A stretch of 64,000 bases of DNA from Gautieria morchelliformis (lineage: Eukaryota; Basidiomycota; Agaricomycetes; Gomphales; Gomphaceae): NCBI GenBank assembly GCA_015179125.1, contig WHVA01000222.1, positions 62,001-126,000 on the forward strand, written 5' to 3'. Below the pieces are notes generated by a model. That model did not search any database. It was not told the DNA's origin and saw only the letters and a list, made by a program, of their open reading frames with translations. Shown piece after piece: positions 9,410-51,062 of the stretch. The translations under genes and the position numbers were made by a program. Positions within the stretch are counted from its first letter, which is position 1. Each line of letters opens with the position of its first letter.

Positions 9410-9931
9410 AGAGTGGCATTGAGCTAGGTGTCAAGATTGGTTTTTCAGGCATTAATAACGTGTATTAATGAACACAGTGAATGCCCGAATAGCTTGTGCG
9501 AAGAGTGTGCCGTTCGGCAAATAAGGTGAACCAATAAATGTTCAGACGATAAGAGGGCTGCCCGAACGGAGCTCGCCCTATCTACAGTCATAGCGAAGTA
9601 GCCCGTGATACTTGATGATGTAACGTGCATGGTGTCACGGAAAGGTTGTTTAAGTAGCAAAAATCCTTTCGCTGGCTAAGGCGCTCCTTCAGAGCCCTTC
9701 GCTGACAGCGCAGATAATAATAGGAAGACTAGGGTAACGAAGGTAAAGTACAAAAACTACCAGTGGTTCTTAAGTCCTCCTCTGCTCTAAGATAGAAATC
9801 TATAGGAGAGGGCTCAAGAAGATGGTCACAGTGAGGTCAAGTTTCACACAAGATAGACGTATGATAATTGAACTGGTGAATATACTTGTGAATGGAAACT
9901 ACTTATATTGAATGCTCTGTCATGACACATT

Positions 9932-11003
9932 TGTTGTGATAAACGCAATTATCTTACTCAAATCATTTATATAAAAAGAAACTAATAAAAAAGAAGAGAA
10001 AATCAAAACAAAAAAAAATCAAAAGAAACACAAACTACATTCACGATAGACGTCGGCGCAAACGACGATCACACGAATCTTACGACACGCTATATTACCC
10101 ATAGATCAGGTAGTATACAGGAGTTCGAGCGTCGGCCACGTGCGGCCGATCAGGGACGGCGCGCCTATCGGGTGATGGTATCAGCCATGACGTCGACAGG
10201 CGCCAGGCCATAGGTACCGAGGGGTACGGGCACCAAACGCCGCAGAGAATAGTAGACTGCGCAGGGGTACAGGGTGTTGTGGAATGACCTGAGAAAGTCA
10301 TCTGCAACACATATACTCAATCAGCTGCCACACAAGAGAGGCACAGAGACAGCGGCCCCATCTCCAAGCCTAGCATTTATGCTAGGCAGGGCAAATATAG
10401 TATCATTCTCTATTCTAGCTCCATGACACGTCTCACTGGCTATTATCTCAGTATTATGTTGACAGGGGCTTTGTATACTAGGTATAGACCCTTGCTCCAA
10501 AGCCCAGAGAATCCTAACATCATCCCCATCACCCCATGACATTATGACTATTAATTAGTCACTCCCTAGTTACAAACAGCCTTCCCGACCCATTTATCTA
10601 GTATCTTGAGTACTAGTACTTACTACTAAAATAGTATAAATAGCTAGCACGAATGTATGAACAAAATTATCCAGAATCGATTTTTTCTGCCTCCTGAAAT
10701 TGCTGTAATCTTGTTTGATAGTTACAGAGCTCAGTTCTTAACAGTTTATTCCAAATCTTCGTTGAGAGTCTACTATCACTGTTTACTCTATACTACCTTA
10801 AAAGCGAACACTTTTGATTTGACTATCCCTTGGATCGACACTGTTCTTCTGACGACACGGTCACGTGACCCTCATTCATCAGTGTTGTATGCACCCTGAA
10901 GAGCTTAGTCAGCACACAGAGGGGAGGCGAATATAGTGGTTTCAACCACTAAGCAACAGATTTCATTTGATAAAAAGGCACTAATTAACATTTTAATCTA
11001 AAA
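9932..11003 (+). repeat. Copia-1 5' LTR
   Basis: Starts TGTTGTGATAAACG and ends TCTAAAA, where identity with the 3' copy stops. The last bases are not the usual CA. Open frames inside it on either strand recur in the 3' LTR and are not genes. Confidence 0.93.
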
Positions 11004-11027
11004 GATTAAAAGTCTCATCGTCTTTCC

Positions 11028-12020
11028 ATGGCTCAAACGACTTCTATTGCCACATCTCACCCGAAACATGACATTCACAAATTTCGTGATGTTAAACCCA
11101 GACTCGGACGGGATAACTGGACCTCTTGGAAGAGGGAACTAATGGCCACTTCCAGAGACAGGGGCCTGTATGACACGATCATCGGCAACGATCTTACCCC
11201 CACCATCACAGATGCCGCAGTTATTATAACAGCTGGTGTACCCCACATCGGGAGCATACCACTCGCACAATTAATTGCTGAGTGGAACGATAGAAACAAT
11301 TCTGCATATAACCAGATCTTATTATGCATCTCACCAGAATTACAGACGGCAATTGATGATACAGATCAGGCGAAAGCCGCCTGGGATATCATCATCAGGA
11401 AATTTGAGTCTACTGATCCGAGCAAAATTAACGTTGTTCGGACCAGATACGAATCTTTCCACATGGTCGAGGGGCACTCTGTCATCACATATCTCACGAC
11501 TATGAGAGAGTTCAGAAGTCAGCTTAAAAAGATGGGTGAAATCATCGCTGATTCCACTCATGCTGCGACGATACTCAGAAACCTTCCGGAATCATGGAGG
11601 GCTATTTCACAGACGATCAGAATGATCACCAGAGTCCCAGACGAGATAGAAGAACGTCTCGAGGCTCATGAAGCCGATCTGAGCTCACTGGAACTGTCAG
11701 ATCAGATGACGACTGCATTTATTGCACGAGCAAAACCGAATCGACCCCCACAGGACAGACACCAAAGTAACTACCAACCTACTGTACGTGCTAACGATCC
11801 TACCCCATCGAACTCATCAAAAGCACCATTCGTGTGTAACAACTGTGGGAGAAAGGGACATTCCGTCGCTCGATGCTATGCGCCGGGTGGAGGAGCAGAG
11901 GGTCAGGCACCTTGGATGAAGAACAGGGAACAGAATAACCCTACCTTCTCAAAGCCAGGAAATGCCTTCGCTACCAAAGTGACAACGACCCCAGAGCGAC
12001 ACCTGATACAGCACAGCTAG
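11028..12020 (+). CDS. Copia-1 gag region
   Basis: A 330-residue frame. It starts 25 bp after the 5' LTR and carries the UBN2/Retrotran_gag-like helical domain typical of copia Gag (GRDNWTSWKRELMATSR near the start). A CCHC zinc knuckle, CNNCGRKGHSVARC, lies near residue 270. Capsid-like structural protein of a Ty1/copia element. Confidence 0.9.
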   Translation: MAQTTSIATSHPKHDIHKFRDVKPRLGRDNWTSWKRELMATSRDRGLYDTIIGNDLTPTITDAAVIITAGVPHIGSIPLAQLIAEWNDRNNSAYNQILLCISPELQTAIDDTDQAKAAWDIIIRKFESTDPSKINVVRTRYESFHMVEGHSVITYLTTMREFRSQLKKMGEIIADSTHAATILRNLPESWRAISQTIRMITRVPDEIEERLEAHEADLSSLELSDQMTTAFIARAKPNRPPQDRHQSNYQPTVRANDPTPSNSSKAPFVCNNCGRKGHSVARCYAPGGGAEGQAPWMKNREQNNPTFSKPGNAFATKVTTTPERHLIQHS

Positions 12021-12046
12021 CCGAACAAACACCGACTAACCTCATC

Positions 12047-15000
12047 ATGATGGCAACCCTAGACGCACCCACACAAATTGAGTGTATCAACCACGTTATC
12101 ATGAAAACGGAAACAGTATCTTCACCTTCTGATGATACGTTCAAATGGTTGATCGACTCAGCAGCATCTAGCCACATCTCCGGAAACAAAGATTTGTTTC
12201 AGGACATGTATGCCATACCACCGATCAAGATTGACATAGCCAACGGGGAGTCCTTCACTGCAGACCAACAGGGGACCATTCGCATCAGAATCGTCTCTGA
12301 CCCTCACTGGGAACTCGAAGATGTACCCATAACCCTTGTCGACGTCATCTACGCCCCGAAACTCAGATCCAACCTACTCTCTGTAGGGAGAATGACCAAC
12401 TCCAATGTCAGCGTACATTTCGGGAAATACCTATCATGGCTAGTACTCGATGGAAGGAGATTAGCATATGGACCAAAGGAGAACAACCTCTACACTTACG
12501 TTGCATTCCCCATTAAATCCAAAGACGAAATTGCTGACCTCGTGTCAGAACCCTCCGGCCCTACTCTATGGCATCATAGACTAGGACACACGAGTTATCA
12601 CACCATCGAGAACATGAGAAAGTTACAGACCGTCAAGAATTTCGATCCAGGAGTTCATCACGGCTCTAATCCTCAGTGTGTCAACTGCCCTCACGGGAAA
12701 CAGACACGAGCTCCATTTCAAAAGGTCGAGAAATTGCCTGAAGAAATAGGAGATCTCATCGTCTCAGATCTATGTGGCCCATTCGAGGCATCGATCGGAA
12801 ATTTCAGATATTTCGTCACTTGGATCGATGCAAAGACTCGCCTCGCCAACATCGATTTTCTCAAAAACAAGGAATGTGCCACCGTAGCTGCCTCATTCAG
12901 ATTGTACACAGCCTGGTTATCAAGGCAAAAGAATGCCACTATCAAGAGGATCAGAAGTGATAACGGAGGAGAGTACATTGGGAAGGAATTCCAGGACATA
13001 TGCACTAAGTCTGGCATAATCCATGAAACCACTTCTCCACACACACCTGAACACAACGGTATCGCTGAGCGATACAACAGAACACTCCAAGAAGGAGCAC
13101 TCACGATCAGACATGATGCTGGCCTTACGGGGAGGTTTTGGGTGTCGGCCATGCATACGATCAATTTCGTCAGAAACCGAATCCTACACTCGCGACTTGG
13201 AATCTCACCTCATGAAGCATTCTGGGGCATGAAACCCAAATCGACTGGTTTAGGATTTATGGATCGAAATGTTGGGCTCTCATACCAAAAGCGACACGAC
13301 TGAAAAATCAATTCAAGTCAGTGGAAGGCATCTTCGTAGGATACTATGACAACTCGAAGGCGTACAAAGTGTGGATACCCCGAACCCATACCGTTCTAAA
13401 AGCAAGGGACGTTATATTCGATGAGTCCAATCATATCGAAAGAGTCACCATACATGCAACAGATAATGATGACTTACCCGATCTTTGGACAAAGAATCTG
13501 ACCACCACTTTCACTCGAGCCACGATACCATCACCAGACCCATCCGACACACCGAATCAAGATCCATGCATCACGTTCACACCATCAAGATACGCACCGA
13601 TCTCTATTGATGAATCTGAATCCGATCACACGCCAAGTGAGCTGACCACCGACGTCACTTCAAATGAAGAATCGGATGAAACAGAGCGTGCACCTAAGGA
13701 TTTTGATCAAGGTCCCTGGCTCGACCCCAATAATTCCACATACGGTCGGGGCAAACGCCTACAGACGATGCAAACGGAGATGGCCGCAATGGCCTTTGGA
13801 ATTGCAGATCTCGAATACACGGAGAGCGTATTCGTGACTCTAGCAGAAGATGAGCCAAACAATTACAGAGAAGCGATGAACTCATCAGAAGCAGAATACT
13901 GGAGACCCTCGTGTCAGGCGGAATATGATACCCTCATGGGTTACCATACCTGGACACTAGTAGAGAGACCTCCCAACACCAACATCGTTGGAAACAGATG
14001 GGTCTTCAGAATCAAACGAGACAACCTAGGAGCAGTCGACAAATTCAAGTCGAGATTCGTTGCACAAGGATTCACACAAATCGAAGGACTCGACTTCAAT
14101 GAGACATTCTCACCTACTATCAGATTCACGACCATCAGACTCATCCTCACCCTCACCTGCAGATATGATCTAGAGCTACGACATATTGACATCAAAGGTG
14201 CATACCTGAACGGAAAACTCGAGGACGACATATATATGCGCCAACCCGAGGGTTTTATCGTCAAGGGGCAAGAACACCTTGTGTGTAAATTACACAAAGG
14301 GATATACGGGCTCAAACAGTCAGGACGAGTCTGGCATCAAACTCTAAAGAGAGGGTTAGAGGCACTAGGTTTCACAGCAGGACATGCCGACTCCACCGTA
14401 TTCTTCCGGTTCAGGGACCATCACTCGATCGAACTGGCCGGATGGTACGTCGATGACGGCCTCCTCGCCGCTAATTCCACAGAATCAATGGATCAAATGA
14501 TCCGAGACATAGGTGGATCATTTGATATCCAAGACCTTGGGACCCCAGAACGATTGCTAGGAGTTAAGATCAAACGAGATCGAGAGGCAGGCACAATACA
14601 TATCTCACAACCAGCATTCATCAATACGGTTGCGAAACGATTCAATATAGTGGTTGGGAAACCCACCAAATCACCAATGGATAGCGCTGCTAAATTCCAA
14701 AAATCATCCATCAGTGACACATATATTGACATACCGTATGCCTCCCTCATAGGAAGCATCAATTATTGTGCCATCGCCACTCGACCAGACATCTCTTATG
14801 CTACGAACAAATGTGCTCAGTTCACATCGAAACCATCACTCCAGCACTGGGAAGCAGCAAAAAGAATCGTACAATACCTTCTACAAACCCGAGACCACGG
14901 AATCCTTTTCAAACAGGAGGGTAAGGGAGTAGAAGGGTACGCACACAACCTCACCGGCTTCACGGACGCAGATTTTGCAGGAGATTCGAACGACAGGAAG

Positions 15001-15347
15001 TCAACATCAGGATGGATCTTTACCTTCAACGGATCACCTGTCTCATGGGCTTCCAAGAAGCAGGGGCTTGTCACCCGATCGTCAATGGAATCAGAGCTGT
15101 TGCCGGCTCCTTCGCATCAGCCGAAGGGATCTGGTTGATACGACTTGCCAAGGATTTCAAAATCAATTTCATTCCAATCCCTTTATTCACCGATAATCAA
15201 TCCTTCATCGCACACTCCGAGAATGACGTCAGTAACACTCAACGAAGCACATCGACGTTCACTATCACTACACACGAGATCAGATTGCTAGTGGAAACAT
15301 TAAGCTCCATTATATCTCCACGCTCCATAACCTCGCTGATATCTTAA
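12047..15347 (+). pseudogene. Copia-1 pol region (PR-IN-RT-RH)
   Basis: Domains in order: aspartic protease with WLIDSAASSH (about 12150), GAG-pre-integrase HRLGHTSYHT (about 12580), integrase core with DLCGPFEASIGNF and SDNGGEY (about 12770-12980), reverse transcriptase with NRWVFRIKRD and YVDDGLL (about 13990-14460), and RNase H with TDADFAGDSNDRKSTSGW (about 14960-15015). The order IN before RT defines Ty1/copia. About two breaks; otherwise complete. Confidence 0.9.
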
Positions 15348-15419
15348 CGAAAGCTCTATCACCATGCAAACATACCTCTACCCTCGATCATCTCGGGATC
15401 ACACATGTTTGAGGGGGTG

Positions 15420-16492
15420 TGTTGTGATAAACGCAATTATCTTACTCAAATCATTTATATAAAAAGAAACTAATAAAAAAAGAAGAGAAAATCAAAACAA
15501 AAAAAAATCAAAAGAAACACAAACTACATTCACGATAGACGTCGGCGCAAACGACGATCACACGAATCTTACGACACGCTATATTACCCATAGATCAGGT
15601 AGTATACAGGAGTTCGAGCGTCGGCCACGTGCGGCCGATCAGGGACGGCGCGCCTATCGGGTGATGGTATCAGCCATGACGTCGACAGGCGCCAGGCCAT
15701 AGGTACCGAGGGGTACGGGCACCAAACGCCGCAGAGAATAGTAGACTGCGCAGGGGTACAGGGTGTTGTGGAATGACCTGAGAAAGTCATCTGCAACACA
15801 TATACTCAATCAGCTGCCACACAAGAGAGGCACAGAGACAGCGGCCCCATCTCCAAGCCTAGCATTTATGCTAGGCAGGGCAAATATAGTATCATTCTCT
15901 ATTCTAGCTCCATGACACGTCTCACTGGCTATTATCTCAGTATTATGTTGACAGGGGCTTTGTATACTAGGTATAGACCCTTGCTCCAAAGCCCAGAGAA
16001 TCCTAACATCATCCCCATCACCCCATGACATTATGACTATTAATTAGTCACTCCCTAGTTACAAACAGCCTTCCCAACCCATTTATCTAGTATCTTGAGT
16101 ACTAGTACTTACTACTAAAATAGTATAAATAGCTAGCACGAATGTATGAACAAAATTATCCAGAATCGATTTTTTCTGCCTCCTGAAATTGCTGTAATCT
16201 TGTTTGATAGTTACAGAGCTCAGTTCTTAACAGTTTATTCCAAATCTTCGTTGAGAGTCTACTATCACTGTTTACTCTATACTACCTTAAAAGCGAACAC
16301 TTTTGATTTGACTATCCCTTGGATCGACACTGTTCTTCTGACGACACGGTCACGTGACCCTCATTCATCAGTGTTGTACGCACCCCGAAGAGCTTAGTCA
16401 GCACACAGAGGGGAGGCGAATATAGTGGTTTCAACCACTAAGCAACAGATTTCATTTGATAAAAAGGCACTAATTAACATTTTAATCTAAAA
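15420..16492 (+). repeat. Copia-1 3' LTR
   Basis: Near-identical to 9932-11003. It is followed by the ACATT target duplication and the resumed R1 copy b. Confidence 0.93.
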
Positions 16493-17666
16493 ACATTTAT
16501 TTCCTATACCCAGTCGCTCTGTCCCCCCATTCCTCACTCCACCTGTATGTTCACTCCGATCGCCCTTCGCCGCATTCAGCGATCGATCTTTGCTGTTCGC
16601 GTCATTCACCATAGCCACACCATCAAAGCACGATCGATGTCCTTGGACCGGCTTGATGGTTCATCACTGGCCCTATCACCTCCTCTGCTCAAACCCCTTC
16701 CGATGTTCCTATGATTGGATTGTCACAACTCATGTATTTCCTGCACCCAGCTATCCCTGCTCCCCTTTCACCACTCCTCCTCCATGTTCGCTTGGCTTCA
16801 CCCCTCCCTTCGACCATGCCTCCTCTATGTTCTCTCCATTCACCCTTCACCGCATTCACCGAACGACCGTTTGCTGCTCGCATCATTTGCCAGCAGGCAC
16901 ACCATCAAACACGATCAACATCCTCTACCCGGTGTGATGGTCCATCACTGGCCCCATCATCTTCCCAATGCAACCCCTTCAGGCGTTCATATGGCTGGGA
17001 TGCATTCGTGGGACGTCCTACCCATAGGTCGTGTGGGATCAACCCAGTAGATGAAGAGTCCATGCAGGGTGGTGTATATGCAGGTCCCAAGGTGTGTTTT
17101 TGTACATAGCTGTCCTTGCCCCCTTTCCTCTCCATCGTTTCATGTTCGCACTCCTCTTCCATTCTATTGTATGTTTATTTCATCTATTTGTATCATGACT
17201 GCACACCCCTATCCAACCCTGACTCACGACGGCCTCTTTCCTGTTCGCTGTTACCATATGAGCATTCGATATAAGTAGTTTACATTCGCATGTATATTCC
17301 TCAGTTCAATTATCATACGTCTAGCTTGTGCAAACTTGACCTCACTGTGATCACTATCTTGAGCCCTCTCCTGTAGATTCCTATCTTTGACTAGACGAAG
17401 ACTTGAGCACCACTGGTAAGTTTTCGTATTTCACCTTCGTTACCTTAGCCTTCGAACTATTCCCTGTGCTGTCGGTGAAGGGCTCCGAAGGAGTGCCTTC
17501 GTCGGCGAAAGGATTGTTGCTACTTAGACAACCTTTTCGTGACACCTCACACGTTATATCGTCGAGTGCCATGGGCTATTTTGCTATGACTGTAGATAGG
17601 GCGAGCTCGGCTCGGGCAGCCCTCTTACCTTCTGAACATTTATTGGTTCACCTTATTCGCTGAACG

Positions 17667-17869
17667 TGTAAATATGTCTATCTTAAGCCTTAAGTCACAA
17701 GAGCACGACAGAACTTGACCAATGAGTGGTATTCTGATGCTATGTAGTGACAGTGTAAGGGTAAGATGTGATGGGAACCGCTGACCGGTTCCCATGCATA
17801 AACTACCTAAGGGGCCCACTGGGATTATGTAATAACTAGTATACATGTATGGTCTCTAGGTTATTTACA
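17667..17869 (-). repeat. Gypsy-1 3' LTR
   Basis: Minus-strand LTR beginning TGTAAATAACC and ending TTTACA. Directly inside lies a run of ten C on the plus strand (17870-17879), the polypurine tract of the minus-strand element. Confidence 0.88.
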
Positions 17870-19585
17870 CCCCCCCCCTCTATAGACAACTATAGGGGAC
17901 CAACTACGACTCATAGATGTCATCCATGATGGAGTCCTCTAAAGTTTCTGATACGATGACATCGTCGTCGTACGGGGCCGGTGGAGCAAGTGACACCTCC
18001 GGGGGCACCTCCGCGTCCGCAGGGGTGGTTGGGTGAGGCTGTTCTGCCTCACCACTAGCGGTGGTTTCCGCTTGGGTGATGGGGCCTGCATCCTCATGGA
18101 GCATAGCCTCGATGGCCGGATCCTCAGTCTGGGGAGGGGGCCGGAAGCGCGCCAGCTCCTGATCGAGCTGAGCGTGGGTGAGAGGTCGCGGCACTGCGGC
18201 CCTCATGTGGCTGGTCTCGAGGACCTTTTGTTGGTCCTCACGAGCGGCGGCACTAAATGCCGCACCGGTGAGGCTGCTGTCAAGATTGGTTTTCAGGTGT
18301 TAATATCGTGTATTAGTGAACAAAGCGAATGCCCGAATAACTTGTGCGAATAAGTATGCCGTTTGGCGAATAGGTGAAGCAACAAATGTCCACAAGATAA
18401 GAGGGTTACCGGAACGGGGCTCACCCTATCTACAGTCGTAGCGGAATAGCCCATGGCACTTGACGATGTAACGTACAAGGTGTCATGGAAGGGCTGTCTA
18501 AGTAGCGACAATCCCTTCGCCGGTGAAGGTGCTCCTTTGGAGCCCTTCACCATCGGCACAGAAAATAGTTTGAAGGGTAAGGTAACGAAGATGAAGTATG
18601 AGAACTCACCGGTGATGCCTAAGTCCTCTTCTGGTTGAAGATAGGAATCTCCTGGAGAAGGCTCAAGACGATGATCACAGCGAGGTCAAGTTTGCACAAG
18701 ATAGACGACGTATGATAATTGAACTGGGGAATATACATGCGAAATGCAACTACTTATATCGAATGCTCGTAAGGTATCAGCGAATAGGAAAGAGGCCGTC
18801 ACAAGTCAGGGTTGGATAGGGGTGCGCAGTCGTGATACAACATAGATGAAATAAACATACAATAGAGTGAGAGAAGAGGGAGAACATGAAACGATGGAGA
18901 GTGAAGGTGGCGAAGGCACCTATGTACGAAATCATGTCTTGGGCCCGCATATACACCGCCCTGCACGGGTTCTTCATCTGCTGGGTTGATCCCACATGAC
19001 CTACGGGTAGGACATCCCACAAACGCACCCTGCTCATATGAACACCAGAAGGGGGTTGGATCGAGAAGCTGATGGAGCTACTGATGAGCCATCATGCTGG
19101 GTAGGGATGTCGATTGTGATTTGATGGTGTGCCTGCTGGCGAATGATGTGAGCAGCGAATGGCTGTTTGGCGAAATGCGAGGAAGGGCGAACGGAGATGA
19201 CATAGGGGAGGAGTGGTCGAGGTGGAGGGCGAAGCTGAGCGAACATGGGGGAGGAGTGGCGAAAGGGGAAATGGGGATAACCAGGTGCAGGAAATACACA
19301 AGTCATGACAATCCGATCATAGGAACACCATCGAAAGAGGGTTGAGCAGAGGAGGTGATAGGCCCAGTGATGACTGCCAAGCAGGGCTGTCCACGAGTCC
19401 AGGTTCCTGCAGGTGACTCGCAGTTCAACCTGCGATTTTAACCTGCAGATCCAACTCCCACAAGTCCAGGTTACCCGGCGCCTAAATACCTGCCAAGTCC
19501 AGGTTTGGCCTTTGGAATTCCGCAGGTGACTCGCAGACCTGCAAGCCTTAAATGCCAAGAATTCATGTCATATGTCATTTACATG

Positions 19586-19894
19586 TCATTCAACTACTAT
19601 GACCTCCTTCTGCACAACAGCCTTCTTGACACGCTTACTCTTATCACGCAGCAACTCTACAACATGCTCCTCAGGAACAAGTCCTTCGTATGACAGCCAT
19701 GTGCTGAGTACAGTTCCGGCACGTGTCGACTCTTCCTTCAGAGAGTGACGCATCCGTGATACAGTCAGTCGGCCCCAACTGAATGCACGTTCAACCGGTA
19801 GAGAACTCGCAGATCTCAGGTGATCTGCGAGTATGCCCGTTCCTCCACAGTGTGGCAGTGGGCAGCAACGCCGCCACATCAGTGTGGAGTCCAC
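19586..19894 (-). pseudogene. hAT transposase dimerisation-domain remnant
   Basis: The minus frame contains SSLPVERAFSWGRLTVSRMR, then HSLKEESTRAGTVLSTWL and a basic tail. This matches the C-terminal hATC dimerisation domain, in which LPVERAFS and the following R-R-SL segment are the conserved core. The catalytic DDE part is absent, so the element depends on a transposase encoded elsewhere. Confidence 0.75.
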
Positions 19895-20010
19895 ACCGAT
19901 GTGGCGGCGTTGCTATCCACTGATTGACCTATGTAGGGCCATAAGCTGTGCAGATTGGAGGAGGGCCATCCCCGTGGGAGGAGGCACGTCATGTGACAAA
20001 CAGTGACATG

Positions 20011-21324: not shown

Positions 21325-22786
21325 TGTCAAGATTGGTTTTTAGGCATTAATATCATGTATTAGTGAACACAGCGAATGCCCAAATAACTTGTGCGAATAA
21401 GTATGCCGTTCGGCGAATAGGTGAACCAATAATTGTTCACAAGATAAGAGGGTTGCCTGAATGGAGCTCACCCTATCTACAGTTGTGGTGAAATAGCCCA
21501 TGACACTTGATGATGTAACGTACAAGGCATCATGGAAGGGCTGTCTTGTTGGGTGCATTTATGCTCCTGCACCAAAATCAAGCATAATATATTTGATTTA
21601 TTGTGTGGTGTTTCAATCTCTTCTCATATTGTTCTTGTACCATGCACTCACTTCTCTGATTATTTTCGAAAATTTCCAGTCACTCCCTATTTCTCCATTT
21701 CACTCTGTTATCTCTATTTTCACAGGCGGCTGCACCCAGCGGAGTTTGAAATGACTTCGACGCGCGAGCTCTTGAGCGCTAAAGGGCCGGGTGCAAGTAT
21801 ATGCCTTCTGAGACAGGATAGTGCTCCTCTCTCAGTGACAATAAATTCACTAAGAGAGGTGAGTAGTATTCTTTGTATTTTCATAGCATGTTGACTGAAA
21901 ATCATGTAGTGCATTTGATTCTAGGTATTGTATTAATATAATAGTGACAATAAATTCACTGAGAGAGTGCATTTGATTCTAGCTTTCTAAGAACTCTACC
22001 GAACCTTCCCTGCCATAACCCCAAGTTGCTAACATGTCTAAGTAGCGACAATCCCTTCGCTGACAGCACAGAGAATAGTTCGAAGGCTAAGGTAATGAAG
22101 ATGAAGTATGAGAACTCAACAGTGATGCCTTAGTCCTCTTCTGGTCGAAGATAGGAATCTCCAGGAGAAGGCTCAAGACGATGATCACAGCGAGGTCAAG
22201 TTTGCACAAGATGGACGACGTATGATTTTTAAGATGGACGACATATGATAATTGAACTAAGGAATATACATGCGAATGTAAACTACTTATATTGAATGCT
22301 CGTAAGGTATCAGCGAATAGGAAAGAGGCCGTTGTGAGTCAGGGTTGGATAGGGGTGTGCAGCCATGATACAGCATAGATGAAATAAACATACAATAGAG
22401 GGAGGAGTGCGAACATGAAATGATGGAGAGTAAAGGTGGTGAAGGCACTTATGTACGAAACCATGTCTTGGGACCTACATACATGTGACCCTGCACGGAC
22501 TCTTCGTCTACTGGGTTGATCCCACACAACCTACGGAAGGTCATGACAATCCAATCATAGGAACACCATTGAAAGAGGGTTGAGCAGAGGAGGTGATAGG
22601 CCCAGTGATGACTACCAAGTCGGTCCAAAGACGTCGACCGTGCTTTGACAGCGTGGCTATGGTGAATGGCACAAACAGCGAAGATCAGTCGCCGAACACG
22701 GCAAGGGTGATCGGAGCGAACATGGAGATGGAGTGGGGAATGAGAGAACAGAGCATCTGAGTAGGGGAAATAAACACGTCATGACA
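21325..22786 (+). mobile_element. R1 copy d inside Gypsy-1
   Basis: Starts TGTCAAGATTGG and ends CACGTCATGACA, with perfect 5-bp flanks GGTAC (21320-21324 and 22787-22791). Without the solo LTR it holds, it is about 0.97 kb, shorter than copies b and c. Confidence 0.85.
21547..22034 (+). repeat. S-family solo LTR in R1 copy d
   Basis: 488 bp, starting TGTTGGGTGC and ending TTGCTAACA, with perfect duplication TGTCT (21542-21546 and 22035-22039). The uninterrupted site is visible in R1 copy c near 18490. It shares start, body and the CTCTCTCAGTGA hairpin with 20011-20550. Confidence 0.88.
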
Positions 22787-25700
22787 GGTACCACCCGCTA
22801 TCATGAGACAATCCCTTTTGGGATTGGGAGCGCATTGTTCGCGCTTGATGCGCTTGAACATGCCGATCATCTCGCGTGTGCACGTGAGTTGCAGCGTTTC
22901 TTTCGCCCGCGCTAGGAGCTCGACGAAGCGTGGGTCGTCGAGCGGGCAGACGTCGTACCATTGAGTACGACGCTGCTGGGCCTTCCCTACTGGTCATGGT
23001 AGGAGGGCTGTCTCAGAGATCAGTGGGTCTCCGAGTGGTATCATCTCCCCCGGGTAGGGAGGATGAACTGTCCCCGCCGGTGGTGGCAGGACCACGTGAA
23101 GCCCGATGTACTGGGCCTCGACCAGTGCTACTTGCCGTTGTAGGGCAGGGTCATTGATCGTGTGCGACGGTGACGCCACCAAGTATGCACCGATCACACT
23201 TTCCCTCGCCATGGATAACCCATTGATGGTGTTGGGGGTGCCGCGCAATTTCTTGCGCTTCTTTTTCGGCTGCTCTGCCAGCCGCTGTGCCCTCCCCGGG
23301 TCATACGTCTTCCAGACGGAGGAGTCGGACTCCCATCCATCTGGGACGCCGTACGCAGCGTCGGAAGGCGTGCTCTGCCCCTCTGTCGTCGTCGTCGTCG
23401 GGGTCGGCGCCGACAATCGGACGCTAGTCACGATGTTGCGCACACTGGCAAGGGTGCTGTCGTGCGAGGTGATGATGGCCCGGCCACTGGGTCCGTGGCC
23501 GGGTCATGGCGCACCCTTTTTGAGGCTGCGTGGGCGAATGTGAGCTGGAGCTGGGCTGCACTCAGCTGCTGCTCCAGTTCTTTTATTTTTGCGCGCTCGG
23601 CTTCGAGCACGTCGTCGTGGTCTTCGACTGCGCGTTCCAAATCCTTGACCTCCTTCTTGAGGTCATGGATGTCCCGGAGGGGCTCCTCCTGCATGTCACA
23701 CGCGACGCCTCTCGGGAGCCATCCCCAGGCCACGTCGACAGCGTCACCAATGTCCTCGTCCTGCAATTTGACCTTGCGGGTGCCTGTCGCGGCCCTTAGG
23801 TGCGCAGCGTAGTCTGCGCACGTGGCACAATCGTCAGGGTGAACGATCGCCAGACCGTCTTCCCATCCTACGATCATCCAGTGCTCTTGGTTGACTGGAG
23901 CTCGTAGGATGTCTGCGGCCCCCTGTCTTGGGGCTGTTGTGCGCATCGTGGACATTGATGGATCAATGTCCATCCCATCTTTGGGGGGCATCATCTTCGT
24001 GGGTAGATGACGGTGGTTGCTTCCATGAAGCGATGTGCCCTCAGAAAGATCCGAGGCGAAAATTTAACCGCGCCGTGGCTGGCACGTCACGTGGTATGCA
24101 CGTGACAGACGCATCTAGCGGCGTCTGGGGAGGTCCTGTGGTTTGCTCACCCCCCAAAGCTCTAGATAGCTATCTAGGGCTTCAAGGTCCTTGCATGATG
24201 ACATGGGTTCCCATGTCACGTCGCCTAGGGTCCAACGGACTTGGAACTCCAGGTCCGTCGAGTTTATCCATCAATGTGCGATAATCTCGTCGACGAGCCA
24301 CTCCTCGTCATCATTCGCTCCAAAGTCATAAAATGACTTGGCCTCACGACGAGGGAATAATTCGTTGTTGTTAGCCTCGTATCGTCATATGAGGCTTGAA
24401 TGAAAGACCAGTGAAATACGACGGCTTTTCAGCTCGTCGGGAAGTTCAAGGGTCACCGTCGAGGCGTTGTTGTGAGCCTCGACGACGTGGTACGGTCCGA
24501 TGTACCGCGGGACTAATTTTCTGGCTCTTCCTTTCGGGAGAGTTAGGTTCTGGGTTGAGAGGTAGACGCGGTCGTTGGCCGCATACCTGTCGCTCACCAT
24601 ACGTTTCTTGTTTGCATGAAATGTTTGCGTCACTCGATGCTCTATGATTGCATCGTGTGCCGCCATCAGGCTCCATCTTGCCTGATGTGCGAACCGGGCT
24701 CCCCCCTTGAACGGGGTGTCCATGGCTATGGGGAGGTCTATCCGTGGCATATAGCCGTGGTTCAGCTCGAAGGGCGTGAACCTGTGGTCGCGCTGACGTT
24801 GCTGTTGAGGGCGACCTCAACCATCGGGCACTTTAATGCCCAATCCCTTCTGATCGTCTCTGACGACCGTGCGCAATATCTGTCCTATCGAGCGGTTTGC
24901 CTGCTCGGCGGCTCCATCCATTTGGGGATGGAAGGCAGTTGACATGAGGATCTTAGTCCCCATGAGTCGCTGTAGTTCACGCCAAAAGATCGATGTGAAC
25001 TTCGAGTCTCTATCCGAGATGATGGAGTCGGGAACTCCATGGAGTCGAACGACCTCCTTCAGAAACAGCCAGGCTACTCCCTTGGCTGACACGCTCATCG
25101 TGGTTGGTACGAGGTGTACGAGTGACGTTAGTCGGTCGATGACTACCATCAGGTAGTCACAGTCATTGGATTTGGGCAGGGGCCCCATGAAGTCGATGCC
25201 AATCGACTGCCACGGCCTATCCGGAATGGGTAGGCTGTGTAGTAGGCCTTTGGGCTGTTGTGGCCTGGTTTTCGTCATCTGGCACTTCGCACATGATGTG
25301 CAGAACGACTCTATGTCTGGGCTCATGCCCGGCCACCAATATTACCTTCGAACATAGTTCGAAGTCTTCAGATGGCCGTAGTGACCGACTATCTGATGTG
25401 CTCGATCGATGATGATTTCGATCAGCCTCCTTCCCCCCTGAAGAACAGAGCGGGGAACGGCAATGACGTCTCTCTTGAGCTGGTTCTTTGTCAAGATCAG
25501 CCCATCCCGGAGCCCAAATCTCGGGTGTGCCTCCGGGTGCGCCATGATCTTTGCAAACATGGCGTCCCTATGGTACGCATCTCGTAAGACCTTGGACAGG
25601 TCTACGCCCTGCTCGACTATCCAGCGCAGGGGCGTGCCGTCATTTCCTGCGGCGATGACTATGACATCATCATCATCATCGCATGATGCGGCGACACTCG

Positions 25701-26570
25701 CGGGCTTTTGTGAGCCCTCGTTTAATGTGGTGGATTCCGTTATTCTCGCCTCTGTCTTCTCCACAAGGCGTTTAGACCCTCTCGTCGCCGCTGCTCGCAG
25801 CTCGATATATTGGTTGGTGGACAATAGCTCACCGTCCGGGTCTAACCGCATGTCTGCATTCACGAAGACGTGATCCGGGTGATTGTCATCACTCGTGTCA
25901 CTCTCATAGTAGCAGGACAGGCAGTCTGCTACCTTGTTCTCTACACCATCAACATGGACGGTGTTGAAGTTGGACCATGAGAGAAACTCCCACCATCTGA
26001 CCTGGCGGTCAGACAGGCTCTTCTGGGTCTCGAAGTATTTGAGCCCTTTGTGGTCTGTGACAAGGGTGAACCTTCGTCCCAGCAGCTTGTCCTCCCATTT
26101 CATGAGAGCCTTGAGCACCGCGATTGTCTCATGCTCGTGAGTCCGGTAGTGTTGCTGAGCAACACTGAACTTCTTTGACAAGAAGCCGGCAGGCCGACAG
26201 GTTTTCCAGTCAGGGCCTTGGCTGTAGACTGCACCGACACCGGCTTTTGACCTGTCGGTGATCACCCAGATCGGCTCTGGGCACTGTGCGTCTACTGGAT
26301 GCAGGATCGGGGCCTTACAGGCCAACGCCTTAATGCTTTGCCAGCATTTGTCCAGTAATGGGGTCCATTCGAATGGACGGTTGTTACGCGCACAGCCTGA
26401 TAGTGGGGTGGTATATGCACTGACATCTGGCATGTAATGTGCCAGGTACTGTACTAGCCCGAGGAAACGCTGGACGTCGTTGAATGTCCGCGGCCTATGC
26501 CACTCGCAGATGTATTGCATCTTATCCTTGTCGGCATGTACTCCTCGGCCATCGATGATGTGGCCGAGAC

Positions 26571-27258
26571 CAGGGCTGTCCACGAGTCCAGGTTCCTGCA
26601 GGTGACTCACAGTTCAACCTGTGATTTTAACCTGCAGATCCAACTCCCACAAGTCCAGGTGACCCGGCGCCTAAAAACCAGCCAAGTCCAGGTTTGGCCT
26701 TTGGAATTCCACAGGTGATTCGCAGACCTGCAAGCCTTACATTCCAAGAATTCATGTCATTTACATGTCATTCAACCACTATTACCTCCTTCTGCACAAC
26801 AGCCTTCTTGACATGCTTACTCTTATCATGCAGCAACTCTACAACACATTCCTCAGGAACAAGTCCTTCGTATGACAGCCATGTGCTGAGTATGGTTCCG
26901 GCACGTGTTGACTCTTCCTTCAGAGAGCGACGCATCCGTGATACAGTCAGTCGGCCCTGACTGAATGCATGTTCGACATCTGTGGATGTTGCTAGAGGAG
27001 CATGGTCAAAATAGGATGTAAGGATGTGTGAAATAGCTCACCCTCATCCCCACGGGAGGAGACGCGTCATGCACTTGCATGGGGTGAGTCAGCTCGGAAT
27101 AATCTAGCAAGTCACTGCAAGTCACCCGCAGGTTTAACCTGTGGGTCCAAGTCAACTTGCAGAAAAACTCAGGTCAAGTCCAGGTTCCACTTCTGGAAGC
27201 TGGCAAACCTGCGAGTCCAAGTCCAGGTAACCTGCAGGTTGACTCGTGGACAGCCCTG
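26571..27258 (-). mobile_element. hAT-B: non-autonomous hAT derivative in Gypsy-1 RT
   Basis: 688 bp with CAGGGCTGTCCACGAGT inverted termini. The 8-bp flanks GCCGAGAC (26563-26570) and GCTGAGAC (27259-27266) differ at one base. It is the same family as hAT-A, including traces of the transposase C-terminus at 26750-26960. It sits in the reverse-transcriptase segment of Gypsy-1. Confidence 0.88.
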
Positions 27259-28560
27259 GCTGAGACATTCCATTCGGATGGAATAGAGGTCAACCTTTTT
27301 CTTGCTCAGAAACAGGTGGTTCTTCCTCAGTCTGTCAAAGACAATATAGAGGTGCTCTTCATGCTCTTGTATCGAGAGTGAAAAAATGAAGATGTCGTCC
27401 ATGTATACATGGATGAAGCGACCTATGCAGTCGCGGAAAATGGCTGTCATCAGCTGTTGGAACGTTGATTGGGCGTTGCAGTCTCCCATCTGTATCACTT
27501 ATCACTTGGCTCCTAAACATGCCAAGGATCGTGGCAAAGGCTGTCTTTGCTACGTGATCCGGATGAATCTGGATCTGCTCGTATGCTTCCGACATATCGA
27601 GTTTTGTTCGATACCGGCAGCGAGCCATGTCGCTGCAGATGATATCTTGATCCGGGAAAGGTGTGATGTCCTTCACCGTGTTCTCGTTCTGCTGGCACAG
27701 ATTGAAGACAGTTCATAATGTACCGTTCTTTTTCAGCACACACAGCATGGGCACAGCCTACTGCGCGACTGCTTGAATCCACCACTTTGCAGTGGTGTAT
27801 CGTTCTATCTTAGCCGACAGTTCCTCTCGGAAATGTTCGGGGCACTTCAGTAGTTGATACCGCATGTGTTTGTTGGGATCGATGAGGTTGATCTCATGGT
27901 TGATCTCCCGTAGTGGCGGGAGTTCTAATGGAATTCCACTGACTAGGTCAGTGATTCGTTCCATCCATTCCTCGCGGAGGCGAGGAAGGTCATCATCCGT
28001 GAGGATGATGATGGTGGTTGGCTTAGAAGCCATTAGGCGCTGTGTGCGTCTATTGGGTCCCATGGCGCGTGGAACTGCTCTCCTTTTTCCCATCGCTTTC
28101 ACTGTTAGGTGAGAGCACCTCTCCCTACGATTGTAGGGCGAGTTCGAGGACGAGTCGTCCCGCGACTTGTCCTCCTGGCTTCAATGAGCCAGGCTAGGCT
28201 TCGGCGCCTGGGTGATCCTGCTCACCCGTGGCCCCTTGTCCTCATTCATCAATCCATCATCGTCGAACGAGACCTTGCCCGTGGGGATTACTTTGTTCCC
28301 CTTGCGGATTGTCCCTGGGCTTGAGAAGTCCAGGGTTATGCCAAATCTCCTTAGGAATGGCATCCCTAAGATCACATCGTAAATTCAACATTCACCACGT
28401 CGAAATATTCGTTGTATGTTTCATGACCAAATTTGATGGTCGTGTTCATTCCATAGTTGATCGTGGAACGGCTGCCTATGCATGCTAGCTGCAGCGCAAT
28501 TGGTTGCTCCAGGGAGAATGTCTTCATCCCTGTAGCTCGCGTGAATTCAGGGGATAGCAG

Positions 28561-29103
28561 TAGGGCTGCACACCGTCCGTATTAAGTCTACGGCCGTATA
28601 ATTTACGGCAAGTTGACGGATATGGCAGACCATATACCGTCCATATGATCGACACCTCACCCCCTCTGACAGTATGGTACGGGTACCGTACCGTCTGTAT
28701 TACGGTTGACGGATCATAGGGCTGATCTATTGGAGCTCGGCCTAAACTTAGATCACTTACCGGCTTCCTTACTGCACACGACCGGCAGCAAAACTAAAAT
28801 ATTGACCTGGCCGCTCGCTACGGTGCGTGCGCACGTAGCAGAATGTCAGCAGGGGTGAACCGGAGCGTGAGCGCCACGTAAATGGCCTGCCTACCCATGG
28901 TAGCGCCCGTCCGCCGATGTATTTTTGGGCTCAGCTACAAGGTTTTCGGGGTTTTCCGAATGCATGCCATATACGCTGTACACGGCCGTATTTTTACGGT
29001 ATCATACGGCGTCAACCCATACCGTATACCGTGCTGTCAGCAGCGCACCCAGACCCTTGACGGTACAGGTGCCGTGGCCGTAACATGGCACCGTACAGCC
29101 CTA
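28561..29103. mobile_element. hAT-like MITE in Gypsy-1 protease/RT region
   Basis: 543 bp. It starts TAGGGCTGCACACCG and ends with the complement of TAGGGCTGTACGGTG. A perfect 8-bp duplication, GATAGCAG, flanks it (28553-28560 and 29104-29111). The related Gypsy-2 keeps the empty site near 42618-42626. It is rich in CCGTA/TACGG motifs on both strands and has no coding capacity. The TIRs differ from hAT-A/B, so it is a separate family. Confidence 0.9.
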
Positions 29104-29135
29104 GATAGCAGTACCCCTTTGCTGCCGCTATCTAG

Positions 29136-31900
29136 CAGACAGTGGGATTTTACGCCGTTTATTTCCCAGTACCCCGACAGGGTACGGTTCTCACTGTGTG
29201 GGCACGTTGGCCGCATCCTATGCTTGCTTCGGTGGTGATACACTGGCTCGGCCGCCTTGTCTGGCGTGACCGACATGCGTGCCGCCATGACTTTCGTGGC
29301 GATGTCGTCTTCTGGTGCGAATCTGCTCGCGTTGGACCTGTAGGTGGTGTCCTCCACCTCTTCGTCCCATTCGTAATATTGGGACGGCTCAGGATCCCAC
29401 TCTTCAGCGGGTGCGTCTCCGTTGTCCGGAGAGTCGTTGGGTTGGGGATCACCCTCCCCCTCTTCATCAATTTGATGGAGAGAATTTTGACTGAGATCCG
29501 TCTCCAGATCCTCGGTCTCTTCTTCATGCCTCGTGGCCGCTGTCCTGATACTGGACTTAAGCCTGGGGCATTCAGCTCTGTTGTGGCCAGGTTCGCCGCA
29601 TTCAAAGCACGTGGTGCTGCTTTGGTTGCCGCTGGGCCGATCGTTACGCCGGCCCAACGCTTTCGCTGGTGGGGCAGGTCGCGGGGACGACCCTGACGCT
29701 TGAGGCTGTTTAGCTTCAGGTGGGTGTCCAGCTTGTGCTGGGCGTGGGGGCGGCGGCCGTTGCGTCGCTCCATTTCTCGAGAACAGGCTGGGCCTGGTCA
29801 GGCCCGTCTGTGTCAACGGCTTGCTCCCTGTAAGCCGGGCAGCACTCGCCGTTGCCGCTGCACTCTCTGCGCGGCGCATCCCATATTGTATCGGGATGCT
29901 TCCTCTATCATTCGGGCTGTCTCAAAGAGTTGCTCTATTGAGCTGCTGTCAGCGTTGTAGCCCTTTTTGAGGACTTTGTTGCGCAGCATTTCGCGCAGCG
30001 CCGACACGAACCGTCTCCGGAACGTGTAACTGTCTGGCGGCTGTATCATACGTGCGGCGTATTTCGTGAGCTCATTCAGCATCTCCTGAATGGTTTTCAT
30101 GCCCTGCATGACCGCGTCAAATTTATTCGATGTGTGATGGTACATCAGTGTGTGCAGGAGCCTTTTTTGAAGGCCCTGCATCACTGTTTCCAGAGTCCAG
30201 CTGTGGACCTGGCGATTGAAGCATTCTACGTTTCAAAGGAACCATTCCTGGGCTTCACCGGTTAGGCAAGTGCCCACGTAACCAACCTGCATGTCTATGC
30301 TGGTTGGCCCTAGGAGGCAGTTCATCTTCAGCCATCTTAAGATGGCTGCGACGAAGATCTCAAACTCTTCGAGGTCAGATCCCCCGGCGTATGGCTCGGG
30401 GTGAGCCAGTTTCACGCCGGCTTTCGCTAGCACAGACTTCTCTGGGTCTGTGTCCGCGGTGTCTGCTAACGCCACACGGATCATCCGTGTGATCCCGTCA
30501 TACGGCTCCAGCGATACGATGCCAGCCTGATCCGGGATTCCCTGCCCTTCCGTTGGGGCCATGGATCGTTCGGGCGGCTGTGACACCGCATGGGGCAGGC
30601 TGTTGTATGCCCTGACGGGCCCCGGGCCTGGATCGGGCTCGGAATCGGGAGCATTTTGTGCTCTCGAGTCTGGGGGCGTTTTGTGCCTGGTGTCCCCAGT
30701 CAGTCCCGCGTTGCGGATCTGCAGCCTGCTGTGCGTCCTGCACGGCTCGCGTGAGCTGCTCGTCCAGCTGCTGAGCGGTGTGGCTTTGGGCCACCGCTTC
30801 CTCAGCGTTCTTTGCTAGCAGCTCGAGGGCCTGCGTATGGCGGCGTGCAGCTGCGGCCTCTTTACGCTGCCAGTGCGCGACTTTGAGCTCTAGGCTCTCG
30901 GTTGTTGTTTCAGAATCAGGCTCTGAGGCGACCTGTTCCCTGACGATCTGTTTGATCGTCTTGTGGCTGTCAGTTGGGGCAGCCGGTTGCTCCTGAGGTT
31001 AATTCCTGAACCTCACATCCTGTTTGACCGGGATGGCTGGCGGCGGCATTCGCTGCTTGTCCCACTCCTTTTGTCGCAGGTCTTCCGCGTCGTGACCACG
31101 TTCGTTAGCTGCAGACTATCGTGAGCTCGGACATGTTGTGTCCCATTCCCTGTGTGGGCAGAGGGCCATCTGGATGTTCTCCAGCATAGCTGCGTCCTGC
31201 AGCCTGATCGCCTCCACCTGGTGGAGTTCCTTGCTGATTGCCATTATGGCGGAGGCAGCATTGTCAAGCTGCGATGCTAGCTGATCGTGCTTGTGGTGTG
31301 TGAGCACGCTCCAGTGCAGCGCAGCCTGCACCTGCTTGTTCAGTACCTCTGCCGTCTCGTGATCGATGGCATGAGCTCTCGAGCTCTTGCAACTTGAGCT
31401 TGAGTATTCCGAGCCCTGACCATCGTCTGGGGCTCGCCTTTTTTGCCGCCGTCCCCCTTCGGGGACAATCGTCGTCGCTCTACTGCGTGAGTGGCGGTTC
31501 GAGTCGTGGCTTTGTGCCCGCCTCGATGTTGATGCTCTGCTGTCTGACGACGGCGAGACTTCTCTGCCCTTTCCTTTGTCTCTGGGCAGAGGGGATTGGG
31601 GGGCAGCGCCGGCTTGTTGCCCGGCGTCGTCTCTTCCTCGACCACGCTCGACGAGACATGGTTGGGATTTTCCTCGTCCTCCATTGGGGGGACAAGGGCG
31701 GTGAGATCTACGATCTCTCCATCTTCTAGCGTCATGGACTCTTGGTCCAGGGTAGCATCCGCTGTCGTGTCGCTGGGCTGCGCCAGTGGTGTGGACCGCG
31801 AGCTCGTCGCTCATGTCCGTCTTTGACTGCGTGGAATCATCACGCTCGCAGCTGACAGTAGAAGGTCTACTGGAGGGCCTCAACAATGTTTAGTCGTCGA
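29136..31900 (-). pseudogene. Gypsy-1 gag region
   Basis: Long polar Gag with an Arg/Ser-rich N-terminus, a gypsy Gag core (EIFVAAILRWLKMNCLLG, about 30330) and a CCHC knuckle, CFECGEPGHNRAECP (about 29600). It corresponds part for part to the better-preserved Gag of Gypsy-2 (45352-42640). Fossil with several breaks. Confidence 0.85.
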
Positions 31901-31981
31901 CACAGCGATCTTTTTCAAGATTGCTTCGAATCCACAATCAGTTGGCCGCGTGGCGATCAACCGCAGGATAGTTCAAAAAGG

Positions 31982-32194
31982 TGTAAAGATGTCTATCTTA
32001 AGCCTTAAGTCACAAGAGCACAACAGAACTTGACCAATGATGGTATTCTGATGCTACGTAGTGACAGTGTAAGGGTAAGATGCGATGGGAGCTGCTGACC
32101 GGTTCCCACGCATAAACTATACAGTGGGTCCCTAAGGGGCCCACTGGGATTATGTAATAACTAGTATACATGTATGGTATCTAGGTTATTTACA
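31982..32194 (-). repeat. Gypsy-1 5' LTR
   Basis: 213 bp, TGTAAATAACC...TTTACA on the minus strand, directly followed inside by CCTTTTTGAACTATCC, the probable primer-binding region, which is also conserved in Gypsy-2. Confidence 0.88.
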
Positions 32195-32673
32195 GAACGG
32201 CATACCTCTTTGCACAAGTTATTCGGGCATTTGCTGTGTTCACTAATACACGATATTAATGCCTAAAAACCAATCTTGACATGCTCGTATGATATCAGCG
32301 AATAGGAAAGAGGCCGTCTGGAGCCAGGGTTGGATAGGGGTGTGCCGTCAGGATACAAATAGATGAAACACATATACAATAGAATGAAAGAGGAGTGTGA
32401 ATATGAAATGGCGGGGAGGAAAGGGGGTGAAGGCACCTATGTACTAAAACATGCCTTGAGAACTGCATACATGTTACCCTGCATGGACTCTTTGTCTACT
32501 GGGTTGATCCCACACGATCTATGGGTAGGATGTCCCGCGAATGCATTCTGGCCATAGGAACACCCAAAGGGGGTTGGGTCGAGAAGATGATGGGACCAGT
32601 GATGAACAATCAAGCCGGGTAAAGGATGTCAATCGTGTTTGATGGCGTGCCTGCTGGCAAATGATGCGAGTAG

Positions 32674-32849
32674 TGTAAGGGAGTGCCACTCCCTACATGG
32701 TGATTCCTTATTTTGAGCATACTAGCACCCATAGCCTTTGGTGGCACATATATAAGCTTGTATCTAACTTACAAAGAACCAGAGAAATCGCTCTTGCGCA
32801 CCTCTCATTAGGTCTAGTGTCTGCGTCTGTGGCACAAAGCCTTCTTACA
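32674..32849. mobile_element. Small insertion in R1 copy a
   Basis: About 176 bp present only in this R1 copy, with AGTAGTG repeated at both borders (32669-32675 and 32849-32855). It reads TGTAAGGGAGTG...CTTCTTACA. It could be a tiny solo LTR with a 4-bp duplication or a TIR element with an 8-bp duplication carrying one mismatch. The palindrome GGGAGTGCCACTCCC lies near its start. Confidence 0.55.
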
Positions 32850-33049
32850 GTAGTGAATAACCGTTCGGTGAATTCGGCGAACAGCAAATGGAGTGAACAT
32901 AGAAGCGGGGTGACGAAAGGGAGGGTGGAGTTACTGGACACAAGAAATAAACGAGTCATGACACTAGGGCGGTACAACTACGGAAGCGCACCTGATCAGC
33001 ATAACACAATGTACTCAATCTCTCCTAGCAATAGGCTGGTTGATTGATG

Positions 33050-39828: not shown

Positions 39829-39839
39829 TTTTTTTTTTC

Positions 39840-40353: not shown

Positions 40354-40479
40354 CTTCGTGGGTAGATGATGGTGGTGGTTGCTTCCAAGAAGCGATGCGC
40401 CCTCGGAAAGATCCGAGGTGAAAATTTAACCGCGCCGTGCCAGCGCGTCACGTGGCCTGCACGTGACGGACGTGTCTAG

Positions 40480-42600: not shown

Positions 42601-42639
42601 TCATGTGAATTCAGGGGACAGCAGTACCCCTTCGCTGCC

Positions 42640-45352: not shown

Positions 45353-45490
45353 GCTCGCAGCCGACAGTAGAGGGTCTACTGGAGGGTCTCAACAATGTTT
45401 AGTCGTCGACGCAGCGATCTTTTTCAAGATTGCTTCGAATCCACTATCGGTTGGTCGCGTGGCGATCAACCGCAGGATAGTTCAAAAAGG

Positions 45491-51030: not shown

Positions 51031-51062
<32 letters not shown>

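What the first reader, a model, noticed from the sequence alone, without database searches (positions are those of the whole stretch)
9424..32968. Six-level nested transposon block readable from its target duplications
R1a (CTAGG) contains R1b (TGCTC), which contains Gypsy-1 (GAACG), which contains R1c (GCTGC/T), which contains hAT-A (CTGCCAAG), which contains an S solo LTR (ACATG). Copia-1 (ACATT) sits beside Gypsy-1 in R1b. R1d (GGTAC) with a second S LTR (TGTCT), hAT-B (GCCGAGAC) and a MITE (GATAGCAG) sit in Gypsy-1. About 1 kb of original element has become 23.5 kb. Every level was found by its own direct repeat, giving a strict order of events.
Basis: seen in the sequence. Interest (0 to 1): 0.85.

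Follow-up and report, generated by a model that had tools for sequence, protein, structure and literature searches.

The report
Deeply nested transposons, probably fungal
A 23.5-kb stretch of a large, repeat-filled, probably fungal genome is a stack of jumping genes inserted into one another; the stack is real but of an ordinary kind, and one of its innermost layers may have arrived already packed inside another layer, so the stacking does not give a strict order of events.

Summary
The nested block at 9424-32968 is real. All ten named insertions and the outermost one were compared with relatives that lack them; the S1 and R1a sites fit less cleanly. One insertion was missed: a 176-bp TGTAAG...CTTACA element at 32674-32849, with GTAG repeats, inside R1a.

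R1 is best read as a solo LTR of a very abundant Ty3/gypsy-like family (3,505 5' ends found in 122 Mb, against 199 LTR-internal junctions). Its internal sequence starts with an 11-nt complement of its own LTR, which points to Tf1/sushi-type self-priming (inferred).

Gypsy-1 and Copia-1 are siblings inside R1b; only LTR divergence (K2P 0.041 against 0.003) ranks them. And hAT-A with S1 at the same base exists elsewhere (C193, 98.7% identical end to end, another target duplication, no R1 beside it). So S1 may have arrived inside hAT-A, and six layers need not be six successive local insertions.

Nested LTR blocks and solo LTRs are well known. Interest is modest.

The parts
9424..9428 (.). target duplication CTAGG of R1a (left)
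   Evidence: paralogues C707 and C325 lack R1a
9429..32963 (-). R1a, level 1: solo LTR, interrupted by R1b and by a 176-bp element; outer pieces 9429-9917 and 32287-32963. Strand is the inferred LTR sense (gag-pol direction)
   Evidence: TGTCAAG...ATGACA ends; orientation
9918..32281 (+). R1b, level 2: solo LTR in R1a, TSD TGCTC 9913/32282; own pieces 9918-9931, 16498-17666, 32200-32281
9932..16492 (+). Copia-1, element with two LTRs in R1b, TSD ACATT 9927/16493; LTRs 9932-11003 and 15420-16492 differ by 3 transitions, all at CpG, and one gap
17667..32194 (-). Gypsy-1, level 3: element with two LTRs in R1b, TSD GAACG 17662/32195; LTRs 17667-17869 and 31982-32194, K2P 0.041
18278..20917 (-). 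R1c, level 4: solo LTR in Gypsy-1, TSD GCTGC 18273 / GCTGT 20918
   Evidence: empty in 11 of 11 fetched Gypsy-1 copies
19382..20742 (+). hAT-A, level 5: hAT-like element in R1c, TSD CTGCCAAG 19374/20743
   Evidence: second copy with the same S1 at C193:211874-213231
20011..20550 (.). S1, level 6: S-family solo LTR in hAT-A, TSD ACATG 20006/20551; shared at the same base by the C193 hAT copy
21325..22786 (-). R1d: solo LTR in Gypsy-1, TSD GGTAC 21320/22787, with internal deletions
   Evidence: empty in 10 of 10 testable of 11 Gypsy-1 copies; C385 has an R1 3 bp away
21547..22034 (.). S2: S-family solo LTR in R1d, TSD TGTCT 21542/22035
   Evidence: 99% identical to an S at a different site (C300)
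26571..27258 (+). hAT-B: 688-bp hAT-like element in Gypsy-1, TSD GCCGAGAC 26563 / GCTGAGAC 27259
   Evidence: empty in 2 of 2 fetched copies; relatives
28561..29103 (.). MITE in Gypsy-1, TSD GATAGCAG 28553/29104, ends TAGGGCTG...CAGCCCTA
32674..32849 (.).
   Evidence: R1c, L016 and L070 lack it; R1a aligns through when one GTAG is kept
32964..32968 (.). target duplication CTAGG of R1a (right)

Best explanation
A solo LTR (R1a) in low-copy DNA became a landing pad, directly or through its guests, for eleven further elements. Shown: R1a holds R1b and a 176-bp element; R1b holds Gypsy-1 and Copia-1; Gypsy-1 holds R1c, R1d, hAT-B and a MITE; R1c holds hAT-A; R1d holds S2; hAT-A holds S1. Each has target repeats at its ends. 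Inferred: R1 and S copies are solo LTRs left when complete elements lost their middle by LTR-LTR recombination; the R1 family is a Ty3/gypsy-like retrotransposon that primes reverse transcription from its own RNA. hAT-A and S1 exist as one unit at two places, so this unit most likely moved as a whole; whether S1 entered before or after hAT-A reached R1c is not settled. Nesting gives a partial order, not a strict sequence.
For: TSDs; sites empty in relatives; missed insertion. R1: 5-bp TSD identical in 21 of 28 stretches; 3,505 5' ends, 0 in the reversed control; 199 LTR-internal junctions, 0 in the control; a pair on C69 with LTRs 95% alike, an 11-nt LTR complement beside the LTR and a purine tract; RT, RNase H and a weak protease match inside it; 7 of 100 listed junctions have one of the 150 listed RT matches within 5 kb on the internal side in the fitting direction, 5 of them at 1,744-1,782 bp, none on the LTR side or the wrong strand within 5 kb; the 11-mer is kept in 21 of 22 R1 copies looked at and in the four of the window. 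Shared hAT-A/S1 unit. LTR ages.
Against: The C69 pair has no matching TSD (ACCTG against GGCCG, read) and belongs to a subfamily with LTRs of about 1,033 bp, not the 1,272-bp one; no complete 1,272-bp element was seen. 93 of the 100 listed junctions had no listed RT match within 5 kb (only 150 of 4,604 RT candidates were scored). Gene conversion could also have shared S1 between two hAT copies. Self-priming rests on sequence alone. One genome, no sister strain. Only three junctions (hAT-A/S1, R1d/S2, Gypsy-1/R1d) were sought elsewhere in the genome; other layers could also have come as units.
Confidence: 0.92

Rival explanations
1. Strict local order: hAT-A entered R1c empty, S1 entered hAT-A there, and the C193 copy was later copied out of this place.
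For: Nesting and TSDs alone allow it; C193 could be the daughter copy.
Against: A cut-and-paste element needs repair from a sister copy to leave the donor filled (recalled); the unit at C193 has its own TSD and no R1 beside it. The 18 differing columns lie in hAT and S1 parts alike and do not say which copy is the parent.
Confidence: 0.3
2. S1 at C193 came by gene conversion between two hAT-A copies, not by movement of the unit.
For: Both copies are 98.7% alike, so conversion is possible.
Against: Likeness holds over the whole 1361 bp including both hAT ends; a conversion tract ending at both ends would be a coincidence.
Confidence: 0.1
3. The block is an assembly artefact.
For: Repeat-rich draft of 1113 contigs; no reads could be inspected.
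Against: Each junction has its own flush target duplication, and relatives without the insert align through.
Confidence: 0.02
4. R1 is a non-autonomous DNA transposon and not an LTR.
For: The 28 stretches examined are solitary, with short inverted ends TGTCA...TGACA.
Against: 5-bp TSD, TG...CA ends, 199 shared internal junctions at one end, paired LTRs on C69, RT at a near-fixed distance in 5 cases.
Confidence: 0.05

Closest known systems
Nested LTR retrotransposon blocks of plants (Jedlicka et al. 2019, PMC6911290; outline and abstract seen)
   Same: LTR elements inserted into LTR elements, also of the same family ('autoinsertions'), nesting common in genomes with many elements
   Different: Here several layers are solo LTRs and hAT/MITE elements, and insertions lie inside (solo) LTRs, which that abstract calls not commonly targeted in plants
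Tf1/sushi-type self-priming Ty3/gypsy elements (Tf1, Tj1; PMC4600332 and PMC6317226, passages seen)
   Same: The sequence beside the 5' LTR is complementary to a stretch of the same LTR
   Different: LTR of about 1.0-1.3 kb, found mostly as solo LTRs here; priming not tested; chromodomain not looked for; RT clade not placed on a tree
hAT elements and hAT-like MITEs (recalled)
   Same: 8-bp TSDs, short inverted ends
   Different: No transposase was sought; hAT-A carries an LTR at two genomic places

Membership tests
Nested transposon block | each inner element has its own TSD | tested here: met
   one-base mismatch at R1c and hAT-B
Nested transposon block | outer sequence continues through in uninterrupted relatives | tested here: met
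   S1 site differs by 17 bp, R1a site by about 9 bp
Nested transposon block | orthologous empty or intermediate states in sister strains | not testable with these tools
   the genome has no relatives held (note)
Solo LTR (R1) | TG...CA ends and 5-bp TSD | tested here: met
   21 of 28 identical TSD, 5 with 4 of 5, 2 with 0 or 1
Solo LTR (R1) | complete elements with two LTRs, internal region and matching TSD | tested here: inconclusive
   C69 pair with purine tract and internal RT, but TSD does not match; only this pair was looked at
Self-priming Tf1/sushi-like element (R1 family) | PBS complementary to own LTR | tested here: met
   11 nt
Self-priming Tf1/sushi-like element (R1 family) | RT clade and chromodomain | not tested
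   only RVT_1, RNase H and a weak protease match seen
Ty1/copia (Copia-1) | gag, integrase and RVT_2 in that order between LTRs | tested here: met
   in three open frames
Ty3/gypsy (Gypsy-1) | RT-RNase H followed by integrase between LTRs | tested here: inconclusive
   RT_RNaseH 25342-26610 over its cut-off; rve 24817-25326 at 28.8 bits, below its cut-off of 32.6; both minus strand; RT core not scanned
hAT (hAT-A, hAT-B) | 8-bp TSD with inverted ends | tested here: met
   relative at C193 with 7 of 8
hAT (hAT-A, hAT-B) | related autonomous hAT transposase | not tested
   not searched

The most novel reading that the evidence does not exclude
A cut-and-paste hAT element carries an LTR of an unrelated retrotransposon as cargo and has spread it as a unit to at least two places; deep 'nesting' is then partly prefabricated, and nesting depth overcounts local insertion events. 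In the same genome a self-priming LTR family survives almost wholly as solo LTRs (about 16 solo-like ends per internal junction by a crude count), supplying many of the landing pads, perhaps with preferred spots (S in R1 at 0, 7 and 19 bp from the S2 site; R1 in Gypsy-1 at 0 and 3 bp from the R1d site).
Probability: 0.6. Interest if true: 0.4.

Novelty: new member of a known kind. Interest (0 to 1): 0.3.

Why it matters
It is a clear worked example of how a repeat-rich genome grows by insertion into insertions, with comparable uninterrupted copies for the layers. Its useful lesson is a warning: inner elements can travel inside outer ones, so dating by nesting needs a search for the composite elsewhere. 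It also points to R1, a very abundant, probably self-priming solo LTR family in this genome.

Tried and rejected
Rejected: R1 as a DNA transposon. Not claimed: a preference of R1 for R1. In one search, 3 of the 29 loci L010-L038 (L019, L025, L027) show the R1 splitting another R1; among the 30 loci L039-L068 I saw no clean case, some unclear (L043, L050, L060, L061). The share of R1 in the genome is very roughly 3.7% (3,505 x 1,272 / 122 Mb, too high, since many copies are partial).

Rejected: S2 with R1d as a prefabricated unit. Four R1/S matches (C182, C870, C1092, C442) looked like it, but in the two that I fetched S sits 7 bp (C870) and 19 bp (C182) further on, so these are separate insertions. 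C1092 and C442 were not fetched. Open: C385 matches across the Gypsy-1/R1d junction. Fetched, it shows an R1 (84% to R1d) 3 bp short of the R1d site, same orientation, in a Gypsy-1 copy. These near-equal sites come from a search that could see only insertions there, so a hot spot is not claimed.

Caveats on my own calls: the Copia-1 join was 3 bases off, the S2 join 1, the S1 join 2 (redone); corrected by eye, Copia-1 reads TGTCATGACACATTTATTTCC against TGTCATGACGCGTTTATTTCC. In one search the Gypsy-1 right LTR began too late; redone. The distance for the right part of R1a (0.39 and more) is unreliable, because that part holds the 176-bp insert found later. The 22 R1 copies leave out 6 of the 28 (the minus-strand copy in L014, L024, L030, L031, L032, L037); L031 and L032 have nearly identical flanks and may be one event.
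Full report
WHERE IT IS. The window is C252:62001-126000 of an unnamed 122-Mb genome in 1113 contigs. LTR, hAT and helitron elements show a eukaryote; helitron relatives in Agaricomycetes, but also in plants, make 'probably fungal' a weak inference.

THE OBSERVATION. Copia-1 has matches for gag, integrase and reverse transcriptase in three open frames on the plus strand; Gypsy-1 has RNase H and an integrase match below its cut-off on the minus strand.

EMPTY SITES. The stronger test is whether relatives without the insert read straight through. In 11 of 11 other Gypsy-1 copies fetched (L072-L082, of 39 matches besides the window's own; 784 candidates, 40 scored) the sequence runs from 18276-18277 on to 20918-20919, the two alignments overlapping by 3 to 5 bases; in 10 of 10 testable ones it runs from 21324 to 22787. 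Two of two Gypsy-1 copies fetched lack hAT-B. Gypsy-2 in the same window lacks the MITE. An uninterrupted R1 (L016) reads through the sites of R1b, Copia-1, Gypsy-1, S2 and hAT-A, and 27 of 28 R1 stretches with both ends, from 27 of 29 loci, are 1270-1273 bp long without hAT-A, the other being 1044 bp. For the outermost R1a, the flanks meet in two paralogues, C707 and C325, with about 9 extra bases at the join. The flanks gave 29 and 30 matches from 27 and 16 candidates, so they are low-copy, and I see no high-copy seventh layer outside R1a.

A MISSED INSERTION. R1a holds a 176-bp element at 32674-32849, TGTAAGG...CTTCTTACA, flanked by GTAG; R1c, L016 and the LTR on C69 lack it, and R1a aligns through when one GTAG is kept.

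WHAT R1 IS. R1 is a 1,272-bp unit with TGTCA...TGACA ends; of 28 stretches 21 have identical 5-bp duplications, 5 have 4 of 5, and 2 have 0 or 1. 3,505 5' ends (up to 1 mismatch) occur in the genome, 0 in the reversed control. A pair of related LTRs (1,033 aligned bp, 95% alike) on C69 encloses sequence with RT and RNase H and a protease match below its cut-off (L005). Beside the LTR the internal sequence begins GTATAATTGAACT; its 11-mer ATAATTGAACT is the complement of a stretch inside the same LTR (position 438-439), kept in 21 of 22 R1 copies looked at and in the four of the window. There are 199 such LTR-internal junctions in the genome (up to 2 mismatches), 0 in the control. Of 100 listed junctions, 7 have one of the 150 listed RT matches within 5 kb on the internal side in the fitting direction, 5 of them at 1,744-1,782 bp; none lies on the LTR side or on the wrong strand within 5 kb, and 93 have none within 5 kb, only 150 of 4,604 RT candidates having been scored. 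So R1 is best read as an LTR, its sense opposite to the strand on which its TGTCAAG end comes first, of a Ty3/gypsy-like element with a Tf1/sushi-style self-primer. Self-priming of this kind is described for Tf1 and Tj1 (PMC4600332, passages) and for Tf1/sushi and Tcn1 (PMC6317226, passages). Against it: the C69 pair has no matching duplication, and no complete 1,272-bp element was seen. By a crude count, (3,505 - 2 x 199)/199, there are about 16 solo-like ends per junction.

ORDER OF EVENTS. Nesting gives a partial order: R1b before Gypsy-1 and Copia-1; Gypsy-1 before R1c, R1d, hAT-B and the MITE; R1d before S2; R1c before hAT-A, always on the condition that no pair came as a unit. LTR divergence adds that Gypsy-1 (K2P 0.041; 6 transitions and 2 transversions in 202 columns) is older than Copia-1 (0.0028; 3 transitions, all CpG, in 1072 columns). 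R1c stands 0.069 from its nearest of 22 R1 copies, R1d 0.095 and 0.109 (two parts), R1b 0.187, left R1a 0.144; this fits older outer layers, but subfamily differences are mixed in.

THE LAST LAYER. A 23-mer from hAT-A next to S1 has one other exact match, on C193. There the whole hAT-A with S1 at the same base lies at 211874-213231, 98.7% identical over 1361 bp, flanked by GGCTCACC and GGCTCAGC; in the 174 and 189 bp of flank held there is no R1 (the one R1 match in the stretch is 20 bp at E 0.27). The 18 differing columns lie in hAT and S1 parts. The unit therefore exists at two places. Either S1 was inside hAT-A before hAT-A came to R1c, or the unit was copied out of R1c; these data do not decide. 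Either way nesting depth need not count successive local insertions. S2 is local as far as seen: its 99% relative on C300 sits at another site, and of four R1/S neighbours the two fetched, C870 and C182, are separate insertions 7 and 19 bp away. For R1d the picture is less clean: C385 has an R1 3 bp from the same site in another Gypsy-1 copy, 84% alike, far end unseen. The other junctions were not sought elsewhere.

COMPARISON. Nesting is called common in LTR retrotransposons, with insertions into the same family in some (PMC6911290, abstract). The depth and legibility here are pleasing but not a new kind. What I would keep is the composite hAT/LTR unit and the solo-LTR-dominated, probably self-priming family.

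Noticed in passing
window 39401-45705: A second Gypsy-1 relative (Gypsy-2) with a large deletion relative to Gypsy-1, and a third hAT copy in inverse orientation beside it.
   Followed up: partly
window 37361-37726 and 45779-46144: Inverted repeats of 366 bp, 94% complementary, around Gypsy-2; perhaps ends of another element.
   Followed up: no
window 53123-58117: A 1664-aa open frame with Helitron_like_N and PIF1 domains (helitron).
   Followed up: partly
window 60963-61592 and 50485-51843: A 126-bp tandem repeat (four 252-bp matches in register) and a diverged repeat of about 120-200 bp.
   Followed up: no
L075, L076: A Gypsy-1 copy whose LTR end abuts R1 sequence (L075, other side not seen), and an R1 inserted in Gypsy-1 at another site (L076, 18004-18008 equivalent): the two families meet again.
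   Followed up: partly
L095 (C870), L096 (C182), L097 (C385): S insertions in R1 7 and 19 bp from the S2 site, and an R1 in Gypsy-1 3 bp from the R1d site; a possible hot spot, but the search was biased to these places.
   Followed up: partly
window 19994-20010: 17 bp beside S1 in hAT-A (and in C193) that hAT-B and hAT-3 lack; resembles a motif that often repeats every 17 bp elsewhere in the genome.
   Followed up: partly
window 9932-16492: Copia-1 LTRs end in ...CTAAAA and not in CA; the 3' end is not canonical.
   Followed up: no
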